From Zygotorulaspora mrakii (lineage: Eukaryota > Ascomycota > Saccharomycetes > Saccharomycetales > Saccharomycetaceae), in contig NC_050721.1 of NCBI RefSeq assembly GCF_013402915.1, positions 992,001 through 1,056,000 of the forward strand: 64,000 nucleotides of DNA, read 5' to 3'. The notes below the pieces were generated by a model, which saw nothing but the letters and a program-made list of their open reading frames with translations, did not search any database and was not told the origin of the DNA. A program made the position numbers and the translations under genes. Below are positions 41,486-58,552 of this stretch, in pieces (the first letter of the stretch is position 1; each line of letters starts with the position of its first letter).

Positions 41486-41716
41486 TCCCAACTCAAAGCT
41501 TTTCGAACCACTCTCGTTTATGCGTATTTGTTTACTCTCATAAAGTTTCCATCTTTCGTGCACTTTATTTTGTAGCTGGCTTCTCAATGCTAAGATGTGA
41601 GTGAGATGTGAGATGTGAGATATGAGAAAAATAAGAAAATATAAAAATATAGACATGATGATCAATAGATAAAATAAACCACAAATTAGATTAGATATGC
41701 TACGCAACATACTCCT

Positions 41717-44700
41717 TCAGTTAGGATGATCCCTTCCGTTGGAGGATAAGCTTGTTGCATGTGGTGAGGAGGATTTACTGGCATTATGATTCGATAAGTG
41801 ACCAACGGAGGAGGTTGGTTCTGAATACTCCGATGTAAGAAGCCTTTTCAAAGTGTGATATTCCCAATTGGCACTTCCCAACATCTCGACGTGTTCGTCA
41901 TTGACGCTTATAGCTCTTTTAATTCTTTCGATATGTTCCGGATTGGTGATCTTTTTTCTTTCTCTCACATGTTCAGCGACCTTAGGAGAGTGTCCAACAC
42001 TCATACCAACTTTGACCAAGGTTTCAATTCCATCAACAGAATTCTTGAGTAAATCCGCGTCAAAAGTAATGTTTCTAGATAATACCACAATCACAATAGT
42101 CGAACCTCCAAATTTGAAGTACCCAATCTCTTCACCACGCTTTACGAAGCCACCTTCTCTACATGTAAGTAAGATGGAACCCACCATCATTGCTCCAATT
42201 GCAATGCATAGGATACTACCAAATTCAGGTGATTCGAGGGGTATTATTACCCTAATATTTTCTCCAAAAACATCTAAAGAGCTGCGAATAGCCATTGGAT
42301 TCACTGTATAATACTCTCCATTGATATAAATTGGTTTACCTACAACAGCATTGCAAGGAGAATGAAACCTGTGATAATCTTGTGGAGCCAACCTAAATAT
42401 ACCAATGCTACAAGAACGATCATTGAACATCTCCGGCTTGTAGCCTTTTGTTAGTCTAGCCAATGTGAACTGACTGCCCTTAATCCAAATTTCTTTTGAT
42501 TGGTGGATACTTGAATATAAAGTACACCTTGAGTCTGCTGGTGAAAGAAATATATTATGATCACCTTCTGGAACTCGAGATCCTTTCTTCAACTTTCTGA
42601 AAAAAAACTCGTTAAAGGTTTTATAGGTAGTTTCTTCACATTGGCTCATATTCAAAGAGTGAAACTTGATGAATGGATCAATTTGTTTGATCGATAATGC
42701 ATCGTCAAACTTTTTACCTTGCCTTATAGATAGGGACTTCAACAAAGATCTGAATTTTTTCGACTCTATACCTTTTCCATTGTAAATGATCCTCATACCC
42801 AATTTAACATGTGCACTAATTTTTTCCTCAATAATTATTCCAGTTTCTCTATCTTGAACAAGGATATTTGCATTATTAGAACCTACTGCATACTTCCCAT
42901 AAGTAAGTTTGATCAATACCTTGGTGAACCATCTTTTGGAAGCAAAATCTGAAGAAACATACGATGGTTTCAGTAATTTACATTTGCCGCGGTACGAACA
43001 AATTGCGAAATGAGTGATAAGGTCATTTTCGAGCACCAACTTAGAATTCATGGCATTACGAGTTGGTTTGCATGACCTAAAGCATTTGGGGCATCTCCAT
43101 ACGTTCCAGAAGCCTGCTGATATTTTCAATATTTGCAGATATTTTATCAGTTCTTCTTTATTAATTGTTTTTCCGGCCCACGGCTGTCTATAAAAATATC
43201 TGAAAATTTCACAAATTTCATCAACCGGAAAGGATCCTAATTTATCCAAATATAATGTGAGATCAACAATGTTGAATGAATCACGATTGGTAGTCAAAGA
43301 TACAGCTTTTTGCCAGAAAAAACTTTTTAGCATGGAGTAACGCGCATATCTGATTCTCAAAGATAGGATGGGATTCTCAATTTTTCTAGTATTAATCGCC
43401 AATTTCAGTGGTAGTTCATACACACACCAGTCTTGACTGTCATTTTGTCTCGTTATTATTTCTGACCATGCTAATTCGCAATGAGCAACTTTGTCGTTGT
43501 AAGAAAATGAATCCTTGTCCATAACATTAAAATGGAAAGTGAAATGATATTCTTCGGGAAACACTTCAAAAGCTGCGCATTCATTGAAAACTGGATTAAG
43601 CGAGTGCTTTCTCCAAGAAGTTTTGAAAACTCTTCTTCCAAACGTAGCAACAACGAAAGGGTCCATGTCATAACTTTTTCGTGAGACTCTATTTCTTAAT
43701 GATGGCAAATGTTTGATTTCTTTGAATTCCACAAAAACAACCCCCGCTGCGTGAGATTTTTTAGAAAGTTTAAAGTTCGGCATGTGCCTAGCATAGTTCA
43801 ACGGCAGGTGTTTTTCCCTTTTTTTTCTTCGTAGACGTCTTAATCTACCGCCGACATTTTTCATCCTTACATTGTCAGTTCCTTCATCATAATAACTTTC
43901 TGCCTCATCTTCATCATCTTCTGAGTCATATAATACTTCCTCCTCTAGAATGTCCGCAGGATCTGAATCAGACTCACCTTCGTAATCATTATCTACCAAA
44001 GACACTTGTGAGAGAGTACCAACAACCTCTGGATCTATATCATCGTATTCAGAATCGAAATCTTCGTCATCTTCGTCATCTTCGTCATCCTCGTCATCTT
44101 CGTTATCATTATTATCATCATCGTCATCATCATCATTATCATTATCATCATCAACATCATCAATTTCACCGATGTTTTCATTTTCACCGTCGTCATCACC
44201 GTCGTCGTCGTCATAATATCCAGAAAATATTGGCAATGTAGAAGAAGTGTCTACGCCTTGTTCATAATCTTTTATTGCATCAGCATCATCAAAGTCAATA
44301 TCATCAACGTCTACAATTTCACTGTCAAGAGATCCAACTTCTGCAAAAAGCTCATATTCGGTATCCATATCTTCAACTTCGTCATTCTCTGATACTTCAT
44401 TTTCACTAGAGCACATGAAAGATTCCTTATAGTCAGCTGTATCATAATCACTTGAATCTCCAGCATTGCTTGCCTTTCTGAAGAGAGATTCTTGAGAATC
44501 GGAAGAGAATTGAGATTTCAGTACTAGTTTTGGAGGAGTTTTGCTCTTTTTCATATTTCTTTTGTATTCCAATACAGCAGTTAAACTATTTTTCCAATTA
44601 TTGTAGGCGTGAATTGTGCTTACCTTTCTTGAACTTGATGTTAGAACGAACCCTAATTGAATTTGTCCAATAGCATAAGTGGATTCAGTTTTATCCTTAT

Positions 44701-45313
44701 AAAATCTCTGGAGTCTTTTGTCGTACAATTTATACCATTTCGGTTCTACCAGAAACTTATAACTCGTGGCCGTATCATTTCGTTTGAATAATTCTAATAG
44801 CGAAATTTTTGCCTCACCAACATATAAGTACCTGCCAGTGGTTTGCGATATTTTGTTCCTTGCTGATGAGGACGGTATTGAGGAAGCAGATCTAGTATTG
44901 GAGTAACTGCTGACTGCCGAGCCTTCTGCTCTTTTAGCACCATTGCTCGCAAAAGATGATGACAATGATATACTGGATCGATCGGCATTAGCAACAGCAG
45001 AAGAGCTTCCCGAATCGTAGTCTGATTGTGTTACGGTTGGAGCTTGTGACAGTGAATCGTATACAATAAATCTTAACCACTCGCTTCTAGGATGTAAGGG
45101 CAGCTTCAATTTCACTCTTTCGTCCCATTTTAACCTTCCATTTCGCAGCGTACTAGTCTTATCCCCATATACAGCGTTCGTGACAACCAAACAAACAGGA
45201 TTGCACTTGAAGTCCTTGAATAATCTAATATTACGAACTTGTACCACATGAACTTTCAATAATAATCTTGGTTTCCTATTATTGCGTCTTCTGCCCTTTT
45301 TGATTAGTTTCAT
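41717..45313 (-). CDS. PSD2: PSD2, phosphatidylserine decarboxylase (Golgi/endosome)
   Basis: 1198 residues (1138 in S. cerevisiae). A first C2 domain is near 17-240, then a long acidic linker with an Asp-rich run encoded by ATC/ATCATC-type codon repeats (about 370-470). A second C2 lies at about 535-650 (GVVFVEFKEIKHLPSL, DPFVVATFGRRVFKTSW), then an EF-hand-like stretch and the decarboxylase from about 830. The autoprocessing site GGST is at about 1069-1072; cleavage turns the Ser into the pyruvoyl cofactor. RFHSPCNAVVG holds the conserved His. It makes PE from PS outside mitochondria. YGR170W ortholog, divergent from LSO2 as in S. cerevisiae. Confidence 0.97.
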   Translation of the reverse strand: MKLIKKGRRRNNRKPRLLLKVHVVQVRNIRLFKDFKCNPVCLVVTNAVYGDKTSTLRNGRLKWDERVKLKLPLHPRSEWLRFIVYDSLSQAPTVTQSDYDSGSSSAVANADRSSISLSSSFASNGAKRAEGSAVSSYSNTRSASSIPSSSARNKISQTTGRYLYVGEAKISLLELFKRNDTATSYKFLVEPKWYKLYDKRLQRFYKDKTESTYAIGQIQLGFVLTSSSRKVSTIHAYNNWKNSLTAVLEYKRNMKKSKTPPKLVLKSQFSSDSQESLFRKASNAGDSSDYDTADYKESFMCSSENEVSENDEVEDMDTEYELFAEVGSLDSEIVDVDDIDFDDADAIKDYEQGVDTSSTLPIFSGYYDDDDGDDDGENENIGEIDDVDDDNDNDDDDDDDNNDNEDDEDDEDDEDDEDFDSEYDDIDPEVVGTLSQVSLVDNDYEGESDSDPADILEEEVLYDSEDDEDEAESYYDEGTDNVRMKNVGGRLRRLRRKKREKHLPLNYARHMPNFKLSKKSHAAGVVFVEFKEIKHLPSLRNRVSRKSYDMDPFVVATFGRRVFKTSWRKHSLNPVFNECAAFEVFPEEYHFTFHFNVMDKDSFSYNDKVAHCELAWSEIITRQNDSQDWCVYELPLKLAINTRKIENPILSLRIRYARYSMLKSFFWQKAVSLTTNRDSFNIVDLTLYLDKLGSFPVDEICEIFRYFYRQPWAGKTINKEELIKYLQILKISAGFWNVWRCPKCFRSCKPTRNAMNSKLVLENDLITHFAICSYRGKCKLLKPSYVSSDFASKRWFTKVLIKLTYGKYAVGSNNANILVQDRETGIIIEEKISAHVKLGMRIIYNGKGIESKKFRSLLKSLSIRQGKKFDDALSIKQIDPFIKFHSLNMSQCEETTYKTFNEFFFRKLKKGSRVPEGDHNIFLSPADSRCTLYSSIHQSKEIWIKGSQFTLARLTKGYKPEMFNDRSCSIGIFRLAPQDYHRFHSPCNAVVGKPIYINGEYYTVNPMAIRSSLDVFGENIRVIIPLESPEFGSILCIAIGAMMVGSILLTCREGGFVKRGEEIGYFKFGGSTIVIVVLSRNITFDADLLKNSVDGIETLVKVGMSVGHSPKVAEHVRERKKITNPEHIERIKRAISVNDEHVEMLGSANWEYHTLKRLLTSEYSEPTSSVGHLSNHNASKSSSPHATSLSSNGRDHPN

Positions 45314-45701
45314 GATTTTATCCCTCTCGACATCTAGTTGACAGTTCTCAGGTGTCCCCTTTCACAGAAGCTCGAGCAAAAATACGAGGTGACCTCCAAA
45401 AAAACTAGCAACAATCTTTAAAGGTTCCTTGAAGAGTTGTGTGAGTTTCCAGCACATTCATAATAGACGAACAGGTATAAATTCTTTCAAAGAATATTTT
45501 GGCGCTTAGCCTTCCTATGCTATGATGTCTGATCATTAATAACGTTGAAGGAACTCCATGTAACAATTAAAGGTAAGGAAGTAATGGCTCGACAGCTAAT
45601 AAGGATAGAAGATCTATAAAAAGTGTCAACTTCTATACACGCCTGTGAGATCTTTGAATAGTTTGAAGACCTGATAAAAGCATAGAATAATCAAGCGAAA
45701 T
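45314..45701. promoter_or_regulatory. divergent promoter PSD2/LSO2
   Basis: 388 bp. CTATAAAAAG at 45613-45622 is a TATA candidate about 80 bp before LSO2. No other element is clear. Confidence 0.4.
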
Positions 45702-45974
45702 ATGGGTAAAAGATTTTCGGAATCGGCAGCTAAAAAGGCAGAAGGGCTAGCAAGGAAAAAACAACAGGCGAACGCAAAACAAAGAGCGGAACAGGAAAGA
45801 CTAGAAGCTGAAGAAGCATCAAAATGGGAGACGGGTTCTCGTCAACCTAACCAGAAAAAGATTTTAGAGGAGCAAAAGAAGCAAGAAAAGCTAAAAGCCA
45901 AGAAGGAGCGTGATGCTCTCCTGGCAGACGAACATGAAATTATTGCCAGTGAACGCAAATGTAAAAGAAGGTAG
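45702..45974 (+). CDS. LSO2: LSO2, ribosome-associated recovery factor (CCDC124 type)
   Basis: 90 residues, almost wholly helical and charged. The start MGKRFSESAAKKAEGLARKKQQANAKQRAEQERLEAEEASKWETGS is the CCDC124/Lso family signature. Lso2 occupies the mRNA channel of idle 80S ribosomes and aids translation restart after starvation. The last ~12 residues (ASERKCKRR) differ from the Gly/Lys-rich ending of the S. cerevisiae protein. YGR169C-A and YJR005C-A (LSO1) are the duplicated copies in S. cerevisiae; here there is one. It is the last gene of the YGR17x block before the WHO cluster. Confidence 0.93.
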   Translation: MGKRFSESAAKKAEGLARKKQQANAKQRAEQERLEAEEASKWETGSRQPNQKKILEEQKKQEKLKAKKERDALLADEHEIIASERKCKRR

Positions 45975-46146
45975 AGAAGACATGGAAAAATTAAAAAAAA
46001 ACAATAATAAACAAAAAGCACCACAAAATAGTATAAAAAACTGTAAAGTTTTCAATTTATGCATTTTTATTGTACTAATAATACCTATGTAATTTTGTAT
46101 CAGAAGTAAAATGAAAAATTGACATTACAGATGGAAAATATAAATT

Positions 46147-47163
46147 TCAATTCAATAAATAAGGTATTTCCGAACTTTTCAGAAACTTGTTTAGCGTATC
46201 AGTTTTAATTCGATCGTTAGCAATTTGGACCCAGGTTTTATTATAATTACCCTTGATGCATTTATGAGGTTTTAAAAATTTATCCCATTCTAGGTTTGCT
46301 ACTGCGGCAACACTTTCAATGACGTTAGCTTCAAATTCACGTATCGTATGTTTGTCTGGAAATATAAATACCTGATATGAATAATACCCGTCTTTTGCTA
46401 CTCCTGGCAGGGTGCGATTTTGTGTATCCAAATATTTCCAAGTGCTTTTGTCGCAAGAATTTAGTTTTTGAGATAAAATAGTTTCATCAACGCCTTTTGT
46501 ACCATTTTTCCTGCACCACTCACTGAAAAAACAATTTTTTAGCTTTATTTTAAGCTGTCTTCTTAGAAATGCGTAATTACTTGGTGTATTGCACGGGTTA
46601 TTTTGAAATAAACTATTCAACGTCTTTGGAAAACCATATTGTTTATCTTTAAATGATGATTGAACATTTTTAATGCTGTTTTTGCTGATATTACCATTCA
46701 AAAATATCTGTCCAACGGTCCTTATATTAATAGCTGGTTTGCTCTTTCTAAACATCGCTAGAAAATGTTCTGGTGGATAATACATCAGTTTGAAAAAATC
46801 ACATTGATATACATGAGATTCTTTTGAGTAAATACGGTATGCGCTTTGATATCGCTGTACTGCGCTGCTGATTCCCTTTACTCTTGCTGCTGTTTTACTT
46901 TCCAAAGATTTTGTGTCTTTTGACATTATGCCTCTCTTTACCGAAAAATTTGAGATAAAAGTATTGTGACAAGACCGCAATAAATTCAATTTTTTATTAG
47001 AGTCTTTCTGATATTCAGTAGAGTCTATGGAAATAGCTTTGGTTTCAGCCGTCACAGGTTTTCTGGTATCATCATAAGCTGTATGTCCTTTTAGCTTTGA
47101 CAAAACTAATTGCGAAGGCCTGAGATCTGAAACTTTTTTGATTGACGGCAAATAATTTCTCAT
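46147..47163 (-). CDS. orphan protein beside the WHO cluster
   Basis: 338 residues from the ATG at 47163 (MRNYLPSIKKVSDLRPSQL); the frame two codons longer begins with GTG. The protein is rich in Lys, Asn and Ser, with no membrane span and no CxxC pairs or LAGLIDADG motif. Its N-terminus could be a mitochondrial presequence. I do not recognise it. In S. cerevisiae the place next to LSO2 belongs to PUS6 and PEX35, and this is neither. AT content appears higher than in flanking genes. It could be a fast-evolving host gene or cargo of the homing locus. Confidence 0.6.
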   Translation of the reverse strand: MRNYLPSIKKVSDLRPSQLVLSKLKGHTAYDDTRKPVTAETKAISIDSTEYQKDSNKKLNLLRSCHNTFISNFSVKRGIMSKDTKSLESKTAARVKGISSAVQRYQSAYRIYSKESHVYQCDFFKLMYYPPEHFLAMFRKSKPAINIRTVGQIFLNGNISKNSIKNVQSSFKDKQYGFPKTLNSLFQNNPCNTPSNYAFLRRQLKIKLKNCFFSEWCRKNGTKGVDETILSQKLNSCDKSTWKYLDTQNRTLPGVAKDGYYSYQVFIFPDKHTIREFEANVIESVAAVANLEWDKFLKPHKCIKGNYNKTWVQIANDRIKTDTLNKFLKSSEIPYLLN

Positions 47164-47453
47164 CCACACTATAATAACATCATCTCTTGAATACTATGTA
47201 CTATTCAACCGGCTTTTAAAAGAATCTTTTCTTACAAAAATAACGTGAAATATCATTTTTTATGTTTAGATGTATCTGTTAATAAATTTACGTATTAAAT
47301 GTTTTCTTTTTTTCGCTAAAGTTCGCAACAGCTTATAGACCCAGAAAATGCTGCTACAAACAAGATGTACCAGGACCAAGATTACATTGAACTCACTCTT
47401 GCTTTATAAGTTTTCAACGCTCTGTAATTACTGTCTTAGGACCATATCGTTTG

Positions 47454-50039
47454 TTATATAATTGTTGTCATACCTTTGCATTTGATGCATGGCCGACATT
47501 GGGGACAACCAGGTGACGGTCCTGAAATTGATCTCAGCTTTCTTATTTTAATCATTTCTGCCTTACTGAAAATTTTGCGACACTCAGGATTTAGGCATCT
47601 TCCTTTATGCGTGCGCAATAGATGATAACAATGGCAACATATTTCACCCGCTGCATTCTTGTCCCAAGGTAACCTAGTCCATTTATTCGAATTAGTTTTA
47701 CCACAAGAATAACAATTACCTCGCCGTTTCACCAATTGTTTTAAAACCCTACATTGTTTTTCTAAATTTTTTTGTGCAATTGAACCACATTTTAAACATT
47801 TGTATCGACCCTCCTTTGCTTCAATTACTTCCATCCTGTCGAACTCAGCTTTGAACGGAATCTTCCGACATGCTTCGTTAGTACAAATTGTAGCTGTACT
47901 ATGATATCTACTTCGACAAACACTACACCATTCACTGCCATCTTCCCAAGGAACTTTTCTCCAACAGCCTGACTCTTTAGAAGAGCAAAAATGACACACA
48001 CCTTTTCTATGTTCATCGCGTTTATTCACCTTCTTATTAGGCTCTTCAAATTGTATTATTATACCATCACATTTGTCGCAACCGTATCCTTCCACACTTG
48101 TACCACCTGAAAGAGTATGCGATTTTTTATTCTCACTCCTGACCTTTTGCCGCATTGAAACTTTACCATATATTGTACTACAATCACTGCATCTCGTTTT
48201 ACTTTCGAAATAATTGCTGTAACACGTCGAGCATACTCTTTCAGGATTAGTGTTGTCCCACGGTATTCTGTACCACTGATCTTTGGTATCTTTATGGCAT
48301 GAAAAGCATAATCTTTCAAAGTTAGCATTAGGCATGTTGACATTTGTGGAAATTCCAGTATAAGAACAAATAACGTAATTGTCTGTAACGAGTGTTTGTC
48401 GCGAGTCAGCTGAGAGAACAAGTCCATAAATTTCTTCCCGGTCGGTAGAGGAGATACTGAAGCGAATCATAGCGGGATGAAGCACCTCAGCTCCTTTTTC
48501 TGCTTCTTCTTCTTCTTCTTCTCCTTCTTCTTCTTCTTCTTCTTCTTCTTCTTCGTCAATACCGACTTCTTCAACCTCTAACTCCTCAGTTTGAGCTTCT
48601 TCATCGCTTCCGTCAAGACACGAAATTGCTCCACTGCTAAAGATTGCTGCACTATGTTGAACATTAGAATTGTCCCTTTCTTCGTCTTTGCTTTCACTGA
48701 AATCATTGCTATCATTATCACTTAAACCAAAATGATCATCTCCATCAATCCGTCTGTGTTGAGCTGATATATACTCAATCAATGGGGTTTTGTTCTTTTC
48801 CGATGAGCACTTGCTTAAAATTGAGAATAATACTTCAAGATTTGTGCCGCCTAAGATATGGAAAATCCAACTATCATTTTTCCGATCTCCATTTGGGCTG
48901 TTTCTGGAGTGATGAAAATAAATACTGATATTCAAACCCAGTGATCGAGTGATCCAAAAAATTCCATTTCTAATTGATTCATGTACAGTGGGTAGTTTTA
49001 CTCGAATAGTATGATTTTTAACTATCACCGAAGCGTCTGCATCAATTAGCCCTGCCATAAATGTTTCACGAACAACCCTCTGTTCCAATCTCATAAATGT
49101 TGGGATTTTTTTTCTATTGTTTTTGTAACCGTTTTCATAAAATTCTAAACCTTCCAAAACTTCAGTCAAAGGATTGTGTGCATTCCAGTTTCTAACGGCG
49201 CCATCAAATGTATGAAGGTATCCATCGGCTTTGAATTTATTACCTGAACACCGAGGGGCGATCCTCAATTTCATACCCCACAGTTCAGCGTTTCTTTGCA
49301 AATTTCTATTAACATCACGATCAGCTAAATGCAGTGTAAACATCGCCCCACGCCTGTACCCATCGCCAATCCAAAATCCAAGAAGCCATGCCATAGCCTT
49401 CAGTTGTTTAAGGGAAACTTTCCGATTAAAGTGCGTTTCCAGCCACGGCTGCAGAACAGATTTCTCGAGTGGAAGTGGAGATAGCAGGACTCTTGTCGCG
49501 GTGCGACAGTCCTTGCTAAGAAACTTCAAGTTGTCTAGCTCACACTCCCAGTCAATAAAGCCGCATTCAACCTTAACACTGTCAATATAATTTTGAATAG
49601 TCGTAGGTTCATCGTCAACAGAAAATCGCTTTGATGTCATCTTTACCATTTTAACAACTTTGCCATTCTCTATGGTCTGGTCACATAATTGAAATGCTTC
49701 AACAATTATTTTTTTCAAAGAGTGTTTGGTATACTTTTTAATCTTTTGAAATGTTCTGAATTGTAATCGCTGAAGTTTACTACATTTCAACTGAACCAGC
49801 CCCCACGGCGGGTCTCTATCCTCATTGAGCAGGTGAGCATACTGAAAAGTATCCTGCGTGAGATTAACTACATCACCAGTACTTCTGTGAACAGCAATCA
49901 CTTTTGACAGCGATCCATCATCAGACATGACATGTGTACCAGCTTTCATCTCTTCTACTGGAACAAGGATCCCATCCGCATCAAATATTTTAGTTCCCTT
50001 GGTAAGACCACCCGTTAACGCAAGCTCTCTGGAGTTCAT
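47454..50039 (-). CDS. HO/WHO-family LAGLIDADG endonuclease, copy 1
   Basis: 861 residues, full length, no internal stop. The N-terminus is intein-like (GLTKGTKIFDADG, VMSDDGS), but the residue matching intein Cys1 is Gly11, so protein splicing is not expected. LAGLIDADG motif 1 is LLGFWIGDG (219-227) and motif 2 MAGLIDADA (328-336); both catalytic Asp residues (226, 335) are present. An intein block F-like segment (IYGLVLSADSRQTLVTDN) lies at 537-554. The C-terminal third has three repeats of a CxxC...W.xPWD...CxxC...C.xxxC module plus extra CxxC pairs, the zinc-finger type seen once in HO. An inserted Glu run (about 495-513) sits before block F. HO is 586 residues, so this is much larger. 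Same orientation as FBA1. Expected action: site-specific double-strand cut in FBA1. Confidence 0.9.
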   Translation of the reverse strand: MNSRELALTGGLTKGTKIFDADGILVPVEEMKAGTHVMSDDGSLSKVIAVHRSTGDVVNLTQDTFQYAHLLNEDRDPPWGLVQLKCSKLQRLQFRTFQKIKKYTKHSLKKIIVEAFQLCDQTIENGKVVKMVKMTSKRFSVDDEPTTIQNYIDSVKVECGFIDWECELDNLKFLSKDCRTATRVLLSPLPLEKSVLQPWLETHFNRKVSLKQLKAMAWLLGFWIGDGYRRGAMFTLHLADRDVNRNLQRNAELWGMKLRIAPRCSGNKFKADGYLHTFDGAVRNWNAHNPLTEVLEGLEFYENGYKNNRKKIPTFMRLEQRVVRETFMAGLIDADASVIVKNHTIRVKLPTVHESIRNGIFWITRSLGLNISIYFHHSRNSPNGDRKNDSWIFHILGGTNLEVLFSILSKCSSEKNKTPLIEYISAQHRRIDGDDHFGLSDNDSNDFSESKDEERDNSNVQHSAAIFSSGAISCLDGSDEEAQTEELEVEEVGIDEEEEEEEEEEGEEEEEEAEKGAEVLHPAMIRFSISSTDREEIYGLVLSADSRQTLVTDNYVICSYTGISTNVNMPNANFERLCFSCHKDTKDQWYRIPWDNTNPERVCSTCYSNYFESKTRCSDCSTIYGKVSMRQKVRSENKKSHTLSGGTSVEGYGCDKCDGIIIQFEEPNKKVNKRDEHRKGVCHFCSSKESGCWRKVPWEDGSEWCSVCRSRYHSTATICTNEACRKIPFKAEFDRMEVIEAKEGRYKCLKCGSIAQKNLEKQCRVLKQLVKRRGNCYSCGKTNSNKWTRLPWDKNAAGEICCHCYHLLRTHKGRCLNPECRKIFSKAEMIKIRKLRSISGPSPGCPQCRPCIKCKGMTTII
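48493..48556. repeat. CTT trinucleotide run encoding poly-Glu in WHO copy 1
   Basis: A nearly pure run of CTT triplets on the plus strand (GAA/GAG on the coding strand) encodes a Glu-rich stretch of about 20 residues. Trinucleotide slippage is the probable origin and its length probably varies between strains. Confidence 0.85.
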
Positions 50040-50993
50040 ATTCCTTGGTAGCTTATCGAAAGGTAAAAAAATAAGGATGAAGGATCAATAGACCAAATGC
50101 CTTTTTTATATCCATATTTTCCATAGCCGCTGAAGTGTTTGTTTCAGACTACGCGACAACGGAGTAGACCTTAAAAGGTTGAGAGGTTTCAATAGTAGTA
50201 TTTGAATCCGACAGAAAACGAATCAGTAACATGAAACAAGCTCAGAAAGCTACGCATCGCTGAAAGTAATACCTTCCATTATAGATCTTTTGCTGCAGCT
50301 GCCAAACTTGAAACGAACATTCAAACTCTGTATTTTCATATCTTGCTACGTTGTGACAAACTTCGTGAAACTTCAGTGAAACGTCAATCAATGCCTGCAA
50401 AGATCAACTGAAAAATCTCACGAGAAGCTGAATCGCAGTAAGATATTGTATTGTAATTCGTTGGCATAAACACTATCGAAAGATAAGAATTGGAGAAAAC
50501 TTGGTTCAAACATGAAGCAAGAAACAAAACAATTACACCTCAAAAATTATTTTTTCGAAAGTGCTAAGAGCTTTTTCGAGGTTCAATCAACTGTGTTGAT
50601 ATCGGCAAGTGATTTGGGGTCAGTTTCGCCACATAACATTATGCTACGGTTGTAATAAACTCGGGTGAGAATGACTTGATGGTGAAAGGGGTTAAATATA
50701 TCCTAAAAAAACTGGTTACTTGCGCCAGTGAATTTACATCTTAGAAACTAAAGACGCCAGCTTTTGATAGAGTATATGGAGAAATATTTTGTTGTTGAAG
50801 TTCAGATCTGCCTAAAATAGCATCAGGCAAGATTCAGTGTACATGTTTAGGACTTTTGAAACGTTCAATGAAGACCTAAATTATATAAAAGGGTAGCATT
50901 TGGCAGCCATGAACAAGGTGTTGCATATTCCCCGACAGGTATCACTGTCCATGGTCAGAAAGACTTACGCTGCAGTTCAGTGGGAAAGCTAAG
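50040..50993. promoter_or_regulatory. divergent promoter between the two WHO genes
   Basis: 954 bp, no supported gene. TATA candidates: ATATAAAAAAGG on the minus strand at about 50101-50112 (60-70 bp before copy 1) and TTATATAAAAGGG at 50881-50893 (about 100 bp before copy 2). An upstream ATG at 50909 opens a 27-codon frame that stops one base before the copy 2 ATG. I found no clear FBA1-derived sequence here and no perfect Swi4/Swi6 CACGAAA box. Confidence 0.55.
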
Positions 50994-53018
50994 ATGAAAT
51001 CCACTGAATTTTCTTCAAGTGGATTGAGTGAAGGATCCCGAGTGTTTTTAGCAGATTGTGCATTAATCGCTGTTGAAAACGTGAAGGTGGGAGATATATT
51101 ATTGTCTGCAGATGGTAATACTTCGGAAGTAGAGGGAATCAGAGAATGTATTGGGAAATCAGTCAATGTGACACAGCTGTCCAAGCATGATACAGAACGT
51201 GCGGAATCCATGCCTTTCGGATTGACGGAAATTTGCATCTCTGAGAATCAGTTGCTCATGTTCAGCACTAAGCAGCGGGTCAAAACGTTGAAAAAGAAGG
51301 AGAAAACAATTGTTGAAGTGACAGAAGTTTCGAAGAATGCCTTGAATGGTAAAGTATCAATGCCCAGAACTGGTTCAAAAGTCTTTAATAAGAATGCTAG
51401 TGTCACTGAAATCAAGGAACATATTAGAAGAAAGACTTCGGAATCTTCAGATGGCAAATTTAGACTACATTGTTCTGTCAAAGATTTGGAATCATTAAAT
51501 AAAGAGTTGAGAATTGCTTCTAGATTACTGTTATGTCCTATTTCGCTTGAAATACCGGTCTTGGAACCATGGTTGGAGATGTTCTTTTCAGAGAAAGTAA
51601 CGGCACAACAAATCGAGGCAATGGCTTGGCTGCTTGGATTCTGGATTGGTGATGGTCACAAGAGAGGCGCGACATTTTCACTCCATTCAGAGGATACTGA
51701 TGTGAATGAAATGTTACGAAACTCTGCAGCACTGTTGAACATGAAACTAACCATTAAGAGAAGGGGAGATGGAGGTTTTTTTGCCGTAGGGACCTTACAT
51801 ACACTCGACGGCTCATGGAACAAGAACAGCCCTTTAACCACTGCTCTGAAAGACTTGAGGTTTTACATGAATGGAAAAAGAGATGATAAGAAAAATGTCC
51901 CCGATTTTATGAGAACCGAAACCAGAACGGTCAGGGAATGTTTTATGGCAGGTCTAATTGATTCTGATGGCTGTTCACGCAATGATCATGGCACTGTCAA
52001 AGTAAAAATTCCTACAGCATTTCCACCTATCAGAGATGGAATTCTGTTTATTGGGCGCTCATTGGGGTTGAACATTACAGTGACATTTGAGCCTGAAAGA
52101 CAAAGAGAGAATTTTCACCAAAGTGACACTTGGATCTTTCATTTATTACTAGGTGCAAATAAAGAGATATTCTGGTCAATTTTGAACAGATGTTCCTGTG
52201 AAAGGAAAAGAAGTCCTCCAATTATTGGTCCTTCTAAAGCATTAGCAGACATGCCTGCTACGCATCACACGGAAAGTACAGAAAATGGTTTTAATATGAT
52301 GCCAATCACATTCAAATTTTCGGACTCTGGCACTAAAAGACTTTTTGACATTTTTCTAAAAGATGCATCTGCAAGTTACATTACTGAGCAGCAGCTGATT
52401 TGCTTCAGTGCTTCACATGGAGGAGGATTAGTGGAATCAAGTGACATTCCCAGTGAGTCGTTTATAGCTGAGGAGAAAAATTTCTGTTTCTCCTGCTCAA
52501 GAGCCAAAGACAGCTCTTTCGAAGATGTTCCTTGGGCGGTTGAGTACACCTGGTGCAGTCAATGCCGTAAAAGGTATCAAATAACTGGGGCCATTTGTTT
52601 AAATCCGAAGTGTAGGAAAATACCTTCAGAAAACGAAATTGAAAAAATGCGTAACAAAAATTTCAGTAGGTTGTGTTGTTTAGAGTGCAATCATGGTACC
52701 AAATTAGAGAAGCGAAAGGTGCAGGAACCTGTGGTCTCCAAATTTCCGGAAAGAAGGTGCCACAGCTGTAGTGCTTCGACCACCGTTAGGTGGTTGAAAT
52801 TGCCGTGGGACAAGAAGTCCACACTAAGAATCTGTCGGTCCTGCAGCCACAAGTTTAATATGACGAACCAAAGATGTCTCAATTCAGAATGTTGCAAACT
52901 TTTTGGTAAAAATGAATTAAAAGAACTTGTTGCGAACTCACTTTCTGAAATCGATGATCAGAATGAATGCTTACCTTGCCCGAGGTGTCAAATGCCGACA
53001 ACGATTAAGCGAGCATAA
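50994..53018 (+). CDS. HO/WHO-family LAGLIDADG endonuclease, copy 2
   Basis: 674 residues, intact. The intein-like N-terminus is GLSEGSRVFLADC with VGDILLSADG; the Cys1 position is Gly10, so splicing is not expected. LAGLIDADG motif 1 LLGFWIGDG (213-221) and motif 2 MAGLIDSDG (318-326), the latter spelled as in HO itself; catalytic Asp at 220 and 325. The endonuclease core aligns throughout with copy 1 (EPWLE, AWLLGFWIGDG.KRGA.F.LH, RETRTVRECFMAGLID, FIGRSLGLNI, DTWIFHLLLGAN), but identity is only moderate, so the copies are old paralogs rather than a recent duplication. The C-terminus has two CxxC/PWx finger modules (from about 498), against three in copy 1. Tail-to-tail with FBA1. Cleavage of FBA1 is inferred from the family. 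Confidence 0.9.
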   Translation: MKSTEFSSSGLSEGSRVFLADCALIAVENVKVGDILLSADGNTSEVEGIRECIGKSVNVTQLSKHDTERAESMPFGLTEICISENQLLMFSTKQRVKTLKKKEKTIVEVTEVSKNALNGKVSMPRTGSKVFNKNASVTEIKEHIRRKTSESSDGKFRLHCSVKDLESLNKELRIASRLLLCPISLEIPVLEPWLEMFFSEKVTAQQIEAMAWLLGFWIGDGHKRGATFSLHSEDTDVNEMLRNSAALLNMKLTIKRRGDGGFFAVGTLHTLDGSWNKNSPLTTALKDLRFYMNGKRDDKKNVPDFMRTETRTVRECFMAGLIDSDGCSRNDHGTVKVKIPTAFPPIRDGILFIGRSLGLNITVTFEPERQRENFHQSDTWIFHLLLGANKEIFWSILNRCSCERKRSPPIIGPSKALADMPATHHTESTENGFNMMPITFKFSDSGTKRLFDIFLKDASASYITEQQLICFSASHGGGLVESSDIPSESFIAEEKNFCFSCSRAKDSSFEDVPWAVEYTWCSQCRKRYQITGAICLNPKCRKIPSENEIEKMRNKNFSRLCCLECNHGTKLEKRKVQEPVVSKFPERRCHSCSASTTVRWLKLPWDKKSTLRICRSCSHKFNMTNQRCLNSECCKLFGKNELKELVANSLSEIDDQNECLPCPRCQMPTTIKRA

Positions 53019-53366
53019 CCAACTATAGCATCGACACATGTCGCTACAACTCTGAAACTTGCAGGCTTCGAAGGTCCCTACTATCTTAACTTATAAAAGA
53101 CGAACTGAACATATACGTCAAAAACTCATCCAAAAACCATACGGTTGGACGCTGGTGAGAAAGGAGCCCGCACTCATTTTCACATGTGTGCGAAATAAGA
53201 GAAAGGGCATTTAACTCGGATATGGCTATGCCAGCATTATCAATATTTAATTTAATTGGCTTAAAAGGTCTAATATTCAATAAATCACGTACTTTTTTAA
53301 ATTGTACTAATCTTTTACCGCACGTAACCGACTGGACTCAGTATAATTATAAAACCAACACAAACC
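53019..53366. other. spacer between WHO copy 2 and the FBA1 relic
   Basis: 348 bp, AT-rich, no supported gene. Short frames of about 63 codons on either strand match nothing I know. Confidence 0.5.
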
Positions 53367-53555
53367 TTACAAATTAGCCAAACCTTGTAAAATAGTCAAA
53401 GCTTCAGCGACTAGTTCAATTAAAACTTCTTGGTCAAACTGCTTATTTTTTTTGAAGCACACACCTCCTACTGTTGGATTATCCATTCTCCTTCTCCATG
53501 ACCTACTTCTACGCCGCCTGAGCAGAGCGTTTATGCAAAACTCTCCTCGCAAGTA
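53367..53555 (-). pseudogene. decayed duplicate of the FBA1 3' end (homing footprint)
   Basis: A 62-codon frame plus TAA on the same strand as FBA1 is collinear with the last 64 codons of the intact FBA1 (53933-54127). Shared anchors in order: YLxG at the start, NPT, KK, FD, V, then VAxAL nine residues before the final Leu and the stop. The anchors never shift by more than about four residues over the whole length. At the DNA level the last 15 codons still share GTxGCTxxxGCTTTG and the stop, and similarity continues upstream to about 53578 (CTGGA...TACTTG). The frame has no stops within this part, but one appears just upstream. The functional FBA1 lies only 378 bp away, so this is a displaced old 3' end. 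Confidence 0.72.
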
Positions 53556-53578
53556 ACCATTTCAGATCCAGCTCTGGC

Positions 53579-53932
53579 CACAAAAAACATGATATAAAAA
53601 TAACTCGCCCTGTCTTATACCTACTTTATAAAGGGTTTGACACTTGCTTAGCAGCCTCTTCGAATATGTCAGTGTCTCAGCACCCCAATGATTGGCAGCT
53701 AATGAATCATCCAGGTTGGCATGTGACTCATTGCCTGATTACATTATTTTGTGATAGGTGTTACCCTGTCTTATAGGTAATGTCAGATCACATGTAATTA
53801 AGCGCTGATAATACATCAACTACAACCAAAGCAGTGCTAACATTTCTGCAATCCGACTCCAGCCACAAGTTATCATTCAGAGAAATAATTTAAATATAAA
53901 CATATTTAGTCATTAAAAAAGCTACTAATTGC
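53579..53932. other. FBA1 3' flank
   Basis: 354 bp between the FBA1 stop and the relic, holding the FBA1 3' UTR and terminator. CCCTGTCTTATA occurs twice (about 53610 and 53763). No endonuclease remnant is recognisable, although the homing model would place one here. Confidence 0.5.
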
Positions 53933-55015
53933 TTATAAAGTACCAGCAGTTCTGAAAACATCCAAAGCGTGAGCAACTCTCTTGGACATGGTCTTTTCAC
54001 CTTCTCTAACCCAGACTCTTGGGTCAAAGTATTTCTTGTTTGGAGCGTCTTCACCAGTTGGGTTACCGACTGGGGTCATTAGGTAATCCTTCTTAGCCAA
54101 GACATAGTCTCTGATACCTTCCAAGTAGGCGAATTGACAGTCAGTGTCCAGGTTGACCTTGACAACACCATTGTCGATACCGGTGTGGAAATCAGCATCA
54201 GAAGAACCGGAACCACCGTGGAAGACCAAGTACAATGGCTTAGCTTCCTTAACACCAGTCTTTGAAACAGTGTATTTTTGGTGTTCACCCAAGATTTCTG
54301 GTCTTAATTTCACATTACCAACCTTATAGACACCGTGACAGTTTCCGAAGGCGGCGGCGATCGAGAAGTTTGGAGAGATTGGGTGTAGGGCCTTGTAGAC
54401 ATTGTAGACTTGTTCTGGCTTGGTGTATAGGGCATCTTCAGAAGCACCTTCGTTGTTGACACCATCTTCTTCACCACCGGTAATACCGATTTCCATTTCT
54501 AACCATTGGTTCATGGCGGCCATTCTCTTGAAGTATTTGGCACAGGTACCAATGTTTTCCTCATCGACTTCTTCGGAAAGATCAAGCATATGGGAGGAGA
54601 ATAGAGGTTCACCGTGTTCCTTGAAGTAAGCTTCATCGGCTTCTAGCATACCGTCGTACCAAGGTAGAAGTTTCTTAGCACAGTGGTCAGAGTGAAGAAC
54701 AACTGGGATACCGTAAGCTGGGGCAATTGATCTGATGTAGTGGGCAGCGGCAACAGCACCCTTGATGGAGGCATTTTGACCTTCGTTAGAGACACCCTTA
54801 CCGGCGAAGTAAGCAGCACCACCGTTGGAGGTTTGCAAGATGATTGGGGACTTGTTGTCACGTGCGGCTTCCAAAGCAGAGACGACAACAGAAGAGGAGG
54901 TGACGTTGATGGCTGGGATAGCGAACTTGTGAGCCTTTGCGTAGTCGAACAAGGCACGGACGTCGTCACCGACGATGACACCGCTCTTTCTCTTTAGGAC
55001 TTCAGTAACACCCAT
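53933..55015 (-). CDS. FBA1: FBA1, class II fructose-1,6-bisphosphate aldolase
   Basis: 360 residues from the ATG at 55015 (MGVTEVLKRKSGVIVGDDVR); upstream ATGs lie in the promoter. Zinc ligands: His in HSDHCAKK, His in CHGVYK and His in FHGGSGSS. The phosphate and substrate loop FHGGSGS and the IDNGVVKVNLDTDCQ block are intact. It cleaves fructose-1,6-bisphosphate to DHAP and glyceraldehyde-3-phosphate in glycolysis. Very strong preferred-codon bias, as expected. The C-terminal part carries several differences from S. cerevisiae (SKTGVKEAKPLYL, SKRVAHALDVFRTAGTL), which could reflect a 3' end brought in by a homing event. YKL060C ortholog. Confidence 0.98.
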   Translation of the reverse strand: MGVTEVLKRKSGVIVGDDVRALFDYAKAHKFAIPAINVTSSSVVVSALEAARDNKSPIILQTSNGGAAYFAGKGVSNEGQNASIKGAVAAAHYIRSIAPAYGIPVVLHSDHCAKKLLPWYDGMLEADEAYFKEHGEPLFSSHMLDLSEEVDEENIGTCAKYFKRMAAMNQWLEMEIGITGGEEDGVNNEGASEDALYTKPEQVYNVYKALHPISPNFSIAAAFGNCHGVYKVGNVKLRPEILGEHQKYTVSKTGVKEAKPLYLVFHGGSGSSDADFHTGIDNGVVKVNLDTDCQFAYLEGIRDYVLAKKDYLMTPVGNPTGEDAPNKKYFDPRVWVREGEKTMSKRVAHALDVFRTAGTL

Positions 55016-55814
55016 TTTGAATATTTGATGGTTTGTGGAAATTAGTTGTATTGGAAAAGATGAACTTTTTTCTACGGTTATATAGGCAAGAGATAACAGC
55101 AACAGAGATAGGGTAGCGAGTTGGGGTGGACCTTTTATATACAACAGTTTTTTCTAAATGAAAAAAATCTGACCACGATAGCGCCAATACAAGCAAAGTT
55201 ACCCAATGGTGCGAGGGAAAAGGAAAGCATAATGTGATGGATGGTGATACGCTGAATGGAAAATACTGCAAAGCAGTGTTCGTCATGTTAGAAGAATAAT
55301 ATGGGCAGGGGCAATGATCTGGATCTGGTGCATACGACGAGCAGTTGATAATTGGGACTAACGTTTGGGTCTTGTCGGTTGTGACGTTAAAATGGTTCGT
55401 TTTTTTTTTATAGAAGAAGCCTGGGTTCTGGAAATAGTGGATGCCGAGCGATGGTGGTAAACGGTGGGAAAAAGAAGCGAGAAGGAAAACAGAAAAGAGG
55501 AGTCTCAGAAAACGAAAAAAAAGAGGATGCGCGGATGTATGGGTTCTATGGTGCTATTGGAGGTCGATTTTCGGGAAAGTGGTTACCCGAACTCGTGTAT
55601 AGTGAGCAGGATATAAGGCGGCTGGGACGCGGCGTTTAGCGACAAAGAAGGTGGAATAGCGTGTAAGTGGGATGGGGTAACAGGAAAGGACAAAAACCAA
55701 AAGTTTATAAAAGGGAGTAGGAAATAAGCTTCATGAGATGGAAGATGGGACTAACCGCTGAGGTTAATTGAGTCAGCAAGAAGTTGGGAATTGGCGGATA
55801 AATTTGTGGAAAAG
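55016..55814. promoter_or_regulatory. divergent promoter FBA1/HRT2 with Rap1, Reb1 and TATA sites
   Basis: 799 bp. TATATAAAAG (minus strand, 55132-55141) is the FBA1 TATA box about 120 bp before its ATG. A Rap1-type site AACCCATACATCC (minus strand) is at 55533-55545 and a Reb1 site TTACCCG at 55583-55589. This combination is usual for yeast glycolytic promoters. The Reb1 site lies about 230 bp upstream of HRT2 and may serve both genes. Sites are read by eye; occupancy is inferred. Confidence 0.6.
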
Positions 55815-57197
55815 ATGACTATTCCCGGTAGGTTTATGACTGATGATAAAGGTACATTTGGTGAACATACGGCGCATGTTCGCTGGCCGGTGATTGTGCA
55901 GAATGCGATCGATGATATGAAAACAGCCATCAAGGAGGTCGAAACGCAAGATGGCAAAACGCAGGGTGAGAGTATCAAGAAGGGATTAGTTTCGTTGCGC
56001 CAGGAGATTCTTGACGACGCGGTTTTGAGGCCCTTTAGCGAGCAAGAGGTTTTGGTAGGGCGGGTTCCATTGTCGTTCAATGAATATCTGTCGCAGAGAA
56101 AAGATGCGCATTGGTTTAACAGCGAGTGGTTGTTTAGTGAGGTGTATCTGTATCGCAGGATAAATGTTTTGTTTCGCTTTCAGAGATTGTGGGCGGACTT
56201 TGATATTTTTGACAGGTTGAAGCAATCGACTTTCGAAAGTTCGTTGTACGGTGTGACGGAATTGGCACTCAGGTACAGGAGTTTGAAGAGTCAGTTGGAA
56301 AAAAGAAGTGCGGATGACGACGAAACGTTGAAACTTTTGTTTAAAGAGTTTGTTGATATATCCTTGTGGGGGAATGCTACGGATCTTTCTTTGTTGACGG
56401 ATGCGACTATCGAGGATATCAAATCGATTCAGGGAGCCAAGGTTAGGCAGGAGTCTGAGTCAAAGATTTTGGTAAATGATACCTTAAAGGCATGGGAGCA
56501 TTTAAAGGCAGAAACAACCACCACAGCTGGTGGAGAAGTTCGCGTTGACTTTATTCTTGATAATTCAGGGTTTGAACTGTATGCGGATTTGATGCTTGCA
56601 GCATTTTTGTTGCAAAGTAAAATGGTAACAAAATGTATATTCCATGCAAAGGATATCCCATATATGGTCAGTGATGTCATGTTGAAAGATTTCGATATTT
56701 TGTTGAAGGATCTAAAGGATAGACAATTTTTTCCAGTCAAAGATGAGTTGTCGCAAGGGGCGTTGGATTTATTTGCGGATGATATAAGTGACCACGTCAA
56801 GAATGGTAGGATTGAATTTCGTGAAAACTCATTTTGGACTACCGAACTAGATTATTGGAACTTGGACAAGACTGAAACGAAATATAATGGATGCGAGATC
56901 TTTCAAGATCTTTTGAATTCAAATCTGGTTATATTTAAAGGTGATCTAAACTATAGAAAACTGACAGGAGACCGAAAATGGCCAAGGACGACCAAATTTT
57001 GCGAGGCAATCGGTCCATTAGCAACCAACGGTATCAGTTTGTTGAGTTTGAGAACGTGTAAAGCAGACGTTCAGGTTGATTTACCTCACGGAGTTGACGA
57101 AGAGTTGACAAAACTGTGGGAAAAGGATCATCCAGGTCAAGGATCTTGGTGGTGCAGCAGTGGTAAATGGGCAGTTATCTGCTTTTCCGCTAAATAA
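55815..57197 (+). CDS. HRT2: HRT2 (YMR027W), DUF89 metal-dependent phosphatase
   Basis: 460 residues from the ATG at 55815 ([25 protein letters not shown]); the longer frame begins with TTG. This is the DUF89/ARMT1 family: [18 protein letters not shown] near residue 245 holds the metal-binding Asp-Asn, with a second conserved Asp and the C-terminal [11 protein letters not shown]. Family members act as damage-control phosphatases on sugar phosphates such as fructose-1-phosphate. The neighbour FBA1 works on related substrates, which is suggestive but not proof of a link. Its position shows YKL060C and YMR027W merged in one ancestral order. Confidence 0.94.
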
Positions 57198-57232
57198 TAG
57201 AAAGTTGTACATATAGATAGACTTTTTTTCTC

Positions 57233-58552
57233 TCACTTTTTCTCTATATGATGCGATGTTGACGATTGCTGTGGCGGTGGTTGACTTAAAAACGGGAGTG
57301 GCCCTGGGAACATTGGAAAGGGGGGCATTCCAAACGGTACAGGCGGTAGTGGTAAATTTGGTGCCTTAATTGGCGGGTCAATTTTTGGTTTCTTGACATT
57401 CTTGTCACTCCCAATCTCTTGCTGTTCATTTTCTCTTTTGGAAGCGTTCTCCGTTGACTCCTTTTCTGATTCTTTTTTCTGTAGAAAACTCTCTACTTCC
57501 TTTTGTACTTGTTCATCTTCTACCAGTGAATCCAAAAGAATACCAGGTGTATTACAACTAGGGCAAACAAAATCACTTTCTAGTAAGGCATCTTCAATTG
57601 CCATCTTTGAAAAGAGCTTGTTACAGCATTTACTTGTCCTTACTGGATCTCTCAATAATCCACCTGTAATAGAGCACTTTAGATTATCTGGTAAATCTGC
57701 AAAGTACCCCTTACGCCATTTCGCATCAGCTCCATTCATGTATCTGTTTTGTTGCTTTCTTTGGTAATCCTCCCAACTCTGCTGATCGGCGACCTGAACG
57801 ACAAATTTACCATCATCGGTAACCATGATTTTCCTTTGAGCCATCTCTTCAGCTGTTATATTATTTGGGTCGATCTCAACACTTTTCAAAAATTTCTTGG
57901 GAATACCTGTAGTCCGTCTTATCCTTTTGCCTTCAAAATTTGGGTCACTATTAGTTGGACAATTTTTGATCCAGTGGTCTCTTGCACCACATCTGTAGCA
58001 CATATAACCTGGTGGTGGTAACCCTTCATTTTCACCAGAATTTGGCCCATTATTTTGTGACTTATAAAAAACCGGTGTCGCTGACGACATTTCCTGTTGT
58101 GTTTGTTCCCATTGATTTTCTTGATCTGCAAACATATTTGCAATACGTTCCTCTTCGGTAACACCATTTACTTTGCCCGAACCATTGCTTGTTATACCGC
58201 TTGATTGCTTTTTCTGAAGTACTCTAGGTTTACCTGTCACGTAACGTGCAGCATTCCCTAATGATGCACTACTGCCTTTACTCATGCCGCCGCCATTTGC
58301 TGAGAAAGCTCTTACTGCTGGTGATCGCCTTGCTACGACGCTTGAAGACCTCGGTATTACCTGGGAGTCGTCATCATATTCATCATTGGTATCTGGGTTG
58401 TATAATCGCAGTTGAAAATGTGTTCCATCACCTAGCTTGTTTTCATGTATAATTTCTCTCTTAAGATCAAAAACTGTAAGGCCTGTACCATCAAACAAGA
58501 TTCTATTTGTATCCCTTTGTGACCGAAATCTATAAAATATTGTACTACTCAT
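57233..58552 (-). CDS. MPE1: MPE1, subunit of cleavage and polyadenylation factor
   Basis: 439 residues. N-terminal DWNN ubiquitin-like domain (1-75, MSSTIFYRFRSQRDTNRILFDGTGLTVFDLKREI), CCHC zinc knuckle CYRCGARDHWIKNC near 185, then a RING/U-box-like domain CSITGGLLRDPVRTSKCC...CPSC near 290-340. The C-terminal tail is Pro/Met-rich. It senses polyadenylation signal RNA in CPF; the human counterpart is RBBP6. YKL059C ortholog, almost the same length. Confidence 0.97.
   Translation of the reverse strand: MSSTIFYRFRSQRDTNRILFDGTGLTVFDLKREIIHENKLGDGTHFQLRLYNPDTNDEYDDDSQVIPRSSSVVARRSPAVRAFSANGGGMSKGSSASLGNAARYVTGKPRVLQKKQSSGITSNGSGKVNGVTEEERIANMFADQENQWEQTQQEMSSATPVFYKSQNNGPNSGENEGLPPPGYMCYRCGARDHWIKNCPTNSDPNFEGKRIRRTTGIPKKFLKSVEIDPNNITAEEMAQRKIMVTDDGKFVVQVADQQSWEDYQRKQQNRYMNGADAKWRKGYFADLPDNLKCSITGGLLRDPVRTSKCCNKLFSKMAIEDALLESDFVCPSCNTPGILLDSLVEDEQVQKEVESFLQKKESEKESTENASKRENEQQEIGSDKNVKKPKIDPPIKAPNLPLPPVPFGMPPFPMFPGPLPFLSQPPPQQSSTSHHIEKK

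What the first reader, a model, noticed from the sequence alone, without database searches (positions are those of the whole stretch)
47454..54127. FBA1-linked pair of HO-related (WHO) homing endonuclease genes
Two intact genes with HO-type architecture (dead intein fold, two LAGLIDADG motifs, CxxC fingers) lie directly downstream of FBA1. HO itself is thought to be a domesticated member of the WHO family, whose members home into FBA1 in Torulaspora and Lachancea. This window therefore holds the mobile relatives of the mating-type switching enzyme at their expected target. Seen: domains and adjacency. Known: WHO biology. Inferred: that these two copies act on FBA1.
Basis: partly seen in the sequence, partly recalled or inferred. 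Interest (0 to 1): 0.95.

Follow-up and report, generated by a model that had tools for sequence, protein, structure and literature searches.

The report
Two WHO homing-endonuclease genes beside FBA1
This yeast DNA carries two intact genes of the published WHO family, selfish DNA-cutting relatives of the mating-type switching enzyme HO, sitting next to the aldolase gene FBA1; the pair is very probably already reported, and a few details are added here.

Summary
Downstream of FBA1 (53933-55015, -) lie two intact, divergently transcribed genes: WHO-A (47454-50039, -, 861 aa) and WHO-B (50994-53018, +, 674 aa). Both have a splicing-dead Hint domain, intact LAGLIDADG catalytic residues and C-terminal Ash1-like zinc fingers. 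They group with named Torulaspora and Lachancea WHO proteins, apart from this genome's own HO and VMA1 intein, and fall in different WHO clades, so they are not a local duplication. Coughlan et al. 2020 (PMC7282813) report such a pair downstream of FBA1 in Zygotorulaspora mrakii, which this genome most likely is; hence already known. Cutting of FBA1 by these two proteins is untested, and the duplicated FBA1 3' fragment of the published homing model was not found. Additions: (1) an 86-bp nuclear copy of mitochondrial DNA lies between WHO-B and FBA1, one of 10 such loci found, a mark of end-joining repair nearby; (2) WHO-A has finger types 1-2-3 and WHO-B 2-3, and a T. globosa protein joins a WHO-B-type enzyme with fingers 2-3 to a WHO-A-type 1-2-3 array, which suggests that finger arrays move between families; (3) a truncated WHO relic lies on another chromosome; (4) the VMA1 intein has lost a catalytic aspartate.

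The parts
53933..55015 (-). FBA1, class II fructose-bisphosphate aldolase, 360 aa; host gene of WHO elements. Bases 663-669 of the gene, the mapped Who6 cut region, read CGCCTTC here
   Evidence: Pfam F_bP_aldolase E 1.4e-81; best aldolase chain in PDB E 5.4e-186; site read; position of the site from PMC7282813
50994..53018 (+). WHO-B: intein-like LAGLIDADG endonuclease with two zinc-finger units (residues 498-570 and 589-665; types 2-3)
   Evidence: AlphaFold model mean pLDDT 84.2 matches PI-SceI, Foldseek E 7.7e-35
47454..50039 (-). WHO-A: intein-like LAGLIDADG endonuclease with a Glu-rich insert and three zinc-finger units (residues 578-657, 682-752, 776-854; types 1-2-3)
50040..50993 (.). 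954-bp divergent upstream region of WHO-A and WHO-B; TATA-like boxes near both ends (50103 -, 50882 and 50884 +, the last two overlapping); no Ndt80 (CRCAAA) or Ume6 (GGCGGC) core
   Evidence: no second copy found in the genome; the motifs are recalled
53233..53318 (-). NUMT: 86-bp nuclear copy of a mitochondrial intron LAGLIDADG frame, about 82% identical to today's mtDNA
   Evidence: 10 nuclear mtDNA loci in the genome
46147..47163 (-). PET130-like gene, left border of the cluster; an ordinary gene
   Evidence: 40% identity to a Lachancea protein named Pet130p; one match in this genome

Best explanation
WHO-A and WHO-B are two intact members of the published WHO family of homing endonucleases, which arrived separately beside FBA1. 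SHOWN here by sequence: intein-like fold with splicing residues lost, nuclease residues kept, Ash1-like finger arrays, position beside FBA1, membership of two separate WHO clades. KNOWN for another member: Who6 of T. delbrueckii cuts sensitive FBA1 alleles near base 668; the published model is that repair from a WHO-bearing chromosome copies in the WHO gene plus a resistant FBA1 3' end. INFERRED: each of the two did this on arrival and FBA1 here now resists both. No FBA1 fragment was found, so they look like resident copies kept by a resistant host; further spread would need allelic flanks such as the PET130 side as the second homology arm. The confidence is for family, place and separate arrival; it overlaps with the first two rivals, which share these and differ on present activity.
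For: Domains; PI-SceI as closest solved relative, E 1.5e-36 and 1.2e-47, and by fold for WHO-B. D218- and D326-equivalents Asp and K301-equivalent Lys in both proteins; splicing His and terminal His-Asn lost. WHO-B with T. globosa HG537_0D01700 in an 11-row clade (100/100) and WHO-A with L. fermentati LAFE_0F07382 (100/98) in a 35-row tree, repeated without fingers on 34 rows. WHO-A plus WHO-B as one clade rejected, p-AU 3e-60. Published Z. mrakii pair.
Against: No FBA1 fragment: one FBA1 match genome-wide at E<=10, nothing credible in 45301-53925. No meiotic promoter core in the shared upstream region, though the paper infers meiosis-specific expression. FBA1 5' and 3' parts do not differ in preferred-codon share. 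No test of cutting. The species name is inferred, not read from a record.
Confidence: 0.85

Rival explanations
1. The two genes are immobile leftovers: intact by chance or by youth, but with no working target, because FBA1 is resistant and the fragment arm has been lost.
For: No FBA1 fragment; no meiotic promoter core; a third WHO copy in this genome is already a truncated relic and the VMA1 intein has lost a catalytic Asp.
Against: 861 and 674 intact codons with the catalytic residues kept; another intact WHO-B with one changed residue (L386P) exists in read-assembly data.
Confidence: 0.3
2. One or both now cut another target, as published for WHO10 of T. globosa, and stay beside FBA1 only by descent.
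For: WHO targets are known to shift (PMC7282813); finger arrays, a possible part of recognition, differ between the two (2-3 against 1-2-3); a WHO relic lies away from FBA1 on C1.
Against: Both sit beside FBA1, whereas the off-target genes of the paper are found mostly away from it.
Confidence: 0.12
3. Domesticated HO-like cellular genes rather than selfish elements.
For: Same architecture as HO.
Against: The genome has its own 591-aa HO frame elsewhere, on C7; the two genes lie in other clades than HO, and the nearest WHO relatives found are only 52% and 48% identical.
Confidence: 0.03

Closest known systems
WHO genes downstream of FBA1 in Zygotorulaspora mrakii, Torulaspora and Lachancea (Coughlan et al. 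2020, PMC7282813)
   Same: Domains, lost motif G, Ash1-like fingers, FBA1 linkage, diverse members in one cluster, some genes opposite to FBA1; very likely this very locus
   Different: No FBA1 fragment found here. NUMT and finger shuffling: terms absent from the main text. The C1 relic is not named in the four main-text mentions of Z. mrakii. Figures and supplements were not seen and may show more
T. delbrueckii Who6
   Same: Family and place
   Different: Who6 cutting was shown by experiment; these two were not tested. FBA1 bases 663-669 are CGCCTTC here, CGCATTT in the Who6-sensitive and CAGCTTT in the resistant allele
HO endonuclease
   Same: Intein-like nuclease plus Ash1-like finger, no exteins
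   Different: HO is a separate gene in this genome, with one finger unit
VDE / PI-SceI, the VMA1 intein
   Same: Hint plus LAGLIDADG fold
   Different: VDE splices and has no fingers; WHO-A and WHO-B lack the splicing residues

Membership tests
WHO family | Intein-like Hint region with LAGLIDADG endonuclease | tested here: met
   model of WHO-B only
WHO family | C-terminal Ash1-like zinc-finger domain | tested here: met
   3 units in WHO-A and 2 in WHO-B; the fingers match a finger protein on C2 at E 1.9e-5 and 2.7e-5, called ASH1 here by eye from its neighbour, a recalled link
WHO family | No exteins; splicing motif G lost | tested here: met
   His-Asn replaced in both; free-standing frames
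WHO family | Falls with named WHO-type proteins, apart from HO and VDE | tested here: met
   WHO set split from HO and VDE at 100/99. The rows come from searches with the two proteins themselves, so other families may be missing; HO and VDE are long branches; the records carry locus tags, not WHO names
WHO family | Downstream of FBA1 | tested here: met
WHO homing element as modelled | FBA1 3' fragment behind the WHO gene | tested here: not met
   the paper finds fragments in only some clusters, so this does not exclude WHO gene membership
WHO homing element as modelled | Cuts sensitive FBA1 alleles near base 668; own FBA1 resistant | not testable with these tools
   needs an experiment
WHO homing element as modelled | Meiosis-specific promoter (inferred in the paper) | tested here: inconclusive
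   0 CRCAAA and 0 GGCGGC in 954 bp (expected 1.68 and 0.08); motifs recalled from S. cerevisiae
HO | Orthologue of HO | tested here: not met
   separate HO frame on C7; different clade

The most novel reading that the evidence does not exclude
WHO nucleases change or widen their target by gaining, losing and exchanging whole finger arrays between WHO genes of one cluster: a WHO-B-type and a WHO-A-type gene, neighbours here, are the two parental types of a T. globosa fusion protein (WHO-B-type enzyme with fingers 2-3, then a WHO-A-type 1-2-3 array). The same modular route could have let one WHO enzyme reach MAT and become HO. Against it: here the two genes are divergent, so a simple deletion would not fuse them, and no link between fingers and target was tested.
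Probability: 0.25. Interest if true: 0.6.

Novelty: already known. Interest (0 to 1): 0.3.

Why it matters
WHO elements are the best candidate ancestors of HO. A cluster with intact members of two clades is a compact test bed, and the finger types give a handle on the open question of what the finger contributes to target choice, raised in the eLife commentary (PMC7282806, passages).

Tried and rejected
FBA1 3' fragments: searched by protein over the genome and by relaxed blastn/tblastn over 45301-53925; best blastn E 0.22 and tblastn E 1.4, taken as chance.

A short open stretch at about 47320-47410 that looked, by eye, like the 3' end of a lost gene: its DNA (within 47164-47453) has no second place in the genome; dropped.

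HO core CGCAACA near 47324: 8 occurrences in 64 kb, against 7.8 expected for equal base use; dropped.

Meiotic or HO-like promoter sites in 50040-50993: none above expectation apart from TATA-like boxes (3, two of them overlapping, against 0.49 expected, P 0.033).

FBA1 5' against 3' composition: preferred-codon share 0.855 and 0.859, GC3 0.52 and 0.45; no clear sign of a foreign 3' end, but a weak test.

WHO-A presence or absence in other strains: WHO-A has one member sequence in the protein database, WHO-B three. A 30-bp CTT run in WHO-A could break short-read assemblies, so not decided.

Further WHO copies: apart from these two, HO, the intein, the C1 relic and the finger protein on C2, no other place at E<=1 among the candidates scored.

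Full report
What is there. The window lies on contig C3 of a 10.45-Mb, 9-contig yeast genome. FBA1 is at 53933-55015 on the minus strand. Downstream of it come WHO-B (50994-53018, +, 674 aa), WHO-A (47454-50039, -, 861 aa) and a PET130-like gene (46147-47163, -). WHO-A and WHO-B are divergent and share 954 bp of upstream DNA. WHO-B is convergent with FBA1, with 914 bp between them.

The proteins. Both match the Hint and homing-endonuclease families and align with PI-SceI over most of the intein. The equivalents of PI-SceI D218, D326 and K301 (numbers recalled) are Asp, Asp and Lys in both. Among the 32 WHO rows compared, D218 is kept in 26 of 32 and D326 and K301 in 32 of 32. The splicing His and the terminal His-Asn are gone, and pairwise alignment puts Gly at Cys1 in WHO-A; in WHO-B that alignment starts one residue later, so Gly there is by extension. 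The AlphaFold model of WHO-B (mean pLDDT 84.2) matches PI-SceI best. This is a dead intein with an apparently live nuclease.

Family. In a 35-row tree WHO-B joins an 11-row clade (100/100) with T. globosa HG537_0D01700, and WHO-A joins L. fermentati LAFE_0F07382 and an unnamed protein (100/98). The WHO rows are split from this genome's HO and VMA1 intein at 100/99. A 34-row tree of the parts before the fingers agrees, and a WHO-A plus WHO-B clade is rejected (p-AU 3e-60). HO and VDE are long branches that meet, so their own order is unsure.

Known or not. Coughlan et al. 2020 (parts 1-6 of 9 of the text, and passages; no figures or supplements) describe WHO genes, the Who6 cut near FBA1 base 668, the homing model, genes opposite to FBA1, and 'a pair of WHO genes' downstream of FBA1 in Z. 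mrakii, sequenced there. This genome has HO and such a pair, so I take it to be Z. mrakii (about 85%); no tool named it. Beside that paper and its eLife commentary, two further searches brought no other study of WHO elements; one paper found names Z. mrakii but not WHO.

Against the simple homing picture. The model calls an FBA1 fragment behind the WHO gene essential. None was found: FBA1 protein has one match in the genome at E<=10, and relaxed searches of the cluster gave only hits that I take for chance. Fragments may have decayed, and the paper finds them in only some clusters. The shared upstream region has no Ndt80 or Ume6 core. FBA1 reads CGCCTTC at 663-669, which differs from both the Who6-sensitive and the resistant allele; since WHO-A and WHO-B are not shown to share Who6's site, this predicts nothing for them.

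NUMT. 53233-53318 matches mitochondrial intron LAGLIDADG frames on C9 at 82% and 79% over 86 bp. C9 is the mitochondrial genome (18-20% GC in the 20 kb looked at, large rRNA and tRNAs; cytochrome b and COX1 frames recognised by eye). The stretch 53225-53325 scores above 60 of 60 shuffles; in each of five other intergenic stretches 8 to 50 of 60 shuffles reach the observed score. Three searches that together cover the mitochondrial map found 10 nuclear loci, hits within about 1 kb taken as one (lower bounds). If loci fell at random, the expected number in the 6.77 kb between PET130 and FBA1 would be 0.0065, a figure made after the fact. In S. cerevisiae, mtDNA pieces of about 45-200 bp are captured at HO-induced breaks by end joining (PMC10802722, a preprint, passages). 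The NUMT lies 614 bp past the FBA1 stop, not at base 668, so it marks a repaired break in the locus, not a WHO cut.

Fingers. A profile built here finds 67 finger units in 34 proteins (32 WHO, HO, the ASH1-like protein). The unit tree rests on 77 columns, and only 9 of 64 inner branches are starred. 55 of 67 units fall in four groups that I read as three types by their order: type 1 (16 units), type 2 (21), and type 3, which is two groups (7 and 11) that the tree does not join; HO's finger and 11 others are not typed. WHO-A has 1-2-3 and WHO-B 2-3. T. globosa HG537_0D01700 has five: two in the WHO-B groups (99 and 98), then three in the WHO-A groups (87, 87 and 93). BLAST agrees: its last 287 residues are 46-47% identical to WHO-A and its two nearest relatives and 34% to WHO-B, while residues 1-480 are 55% identical to WHO-B and 57% to P0006. 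The five other T. globosa proteins, which I take to be the published WHO10 set from their number per strain, have one type-1 finger each. The words for shuffling, domain swap, NUMT and mitochondria do not occur in the main text of the WHO paper; 'chimer' occurs 4 times, in the passages seen about FBA1. Whether finger changes follow target changes could not be tested, since the places of the other genes are unknown here.

Other relatives in the genome. HO on C7 is an open frame of 591 aa. The VMA1 intein on C7 has His at the D326 place, with splicing residues kept, so it probably splices but does not cut. On C1, between genes I read as GRS1 and DUR3 (by eye), lies a 298-codon WHO piece without N-terminus or fingers.

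Noticed in passing
53233-53318: 86-bp nuclear copy of mitochondrial intron DNA between WHO-B and FBA1, one of 10 such loci found in the genome
   Followed up: yes
L036:1178-4369 (C7): The VMA1 intein of this genome has His for the second LAGLIDADG Asp while splicing residues are kept: probably a splicing-only intein
   Followed up: partly
L034:4911-5615 and the open stretch before it (C1): Truncated WHO relic away from FBA1, no N-terminus and no fingers
   Followed up: partly
P0002 (T. globosa HG537_0D01700): WHO protein with five fingers that look like a WHO-B-type pair followed by a WHO-A-type triple
   Followed up: yes
39986-58552: By recalled S. cerevisiae order, the left flank (POL31, PSD2, LSO, PET130) and the right flank (FBA1, HRT2-like, MPE1, TOA2) come from different places; the WHO cluster may sit at a rearrangement breakpoint
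   Followed up: no
C2:678106-678373 and C6:600738-600977: Mosaic NUMTs made of several mitochondrial pieces
   Followed up: no
C9: The mitochondrial contig of 37.6 kb repeats its own start from about 27139 on, so the circle is about 27.1 kb
   Followed up: partly
46147-47163 and 50994-53018: Read-assembly data hold copies of PET130 and WHO-B that differ from the window by one residue each (M80V, L386P), so a second strain has probably been sequenced
   Followed up: partly
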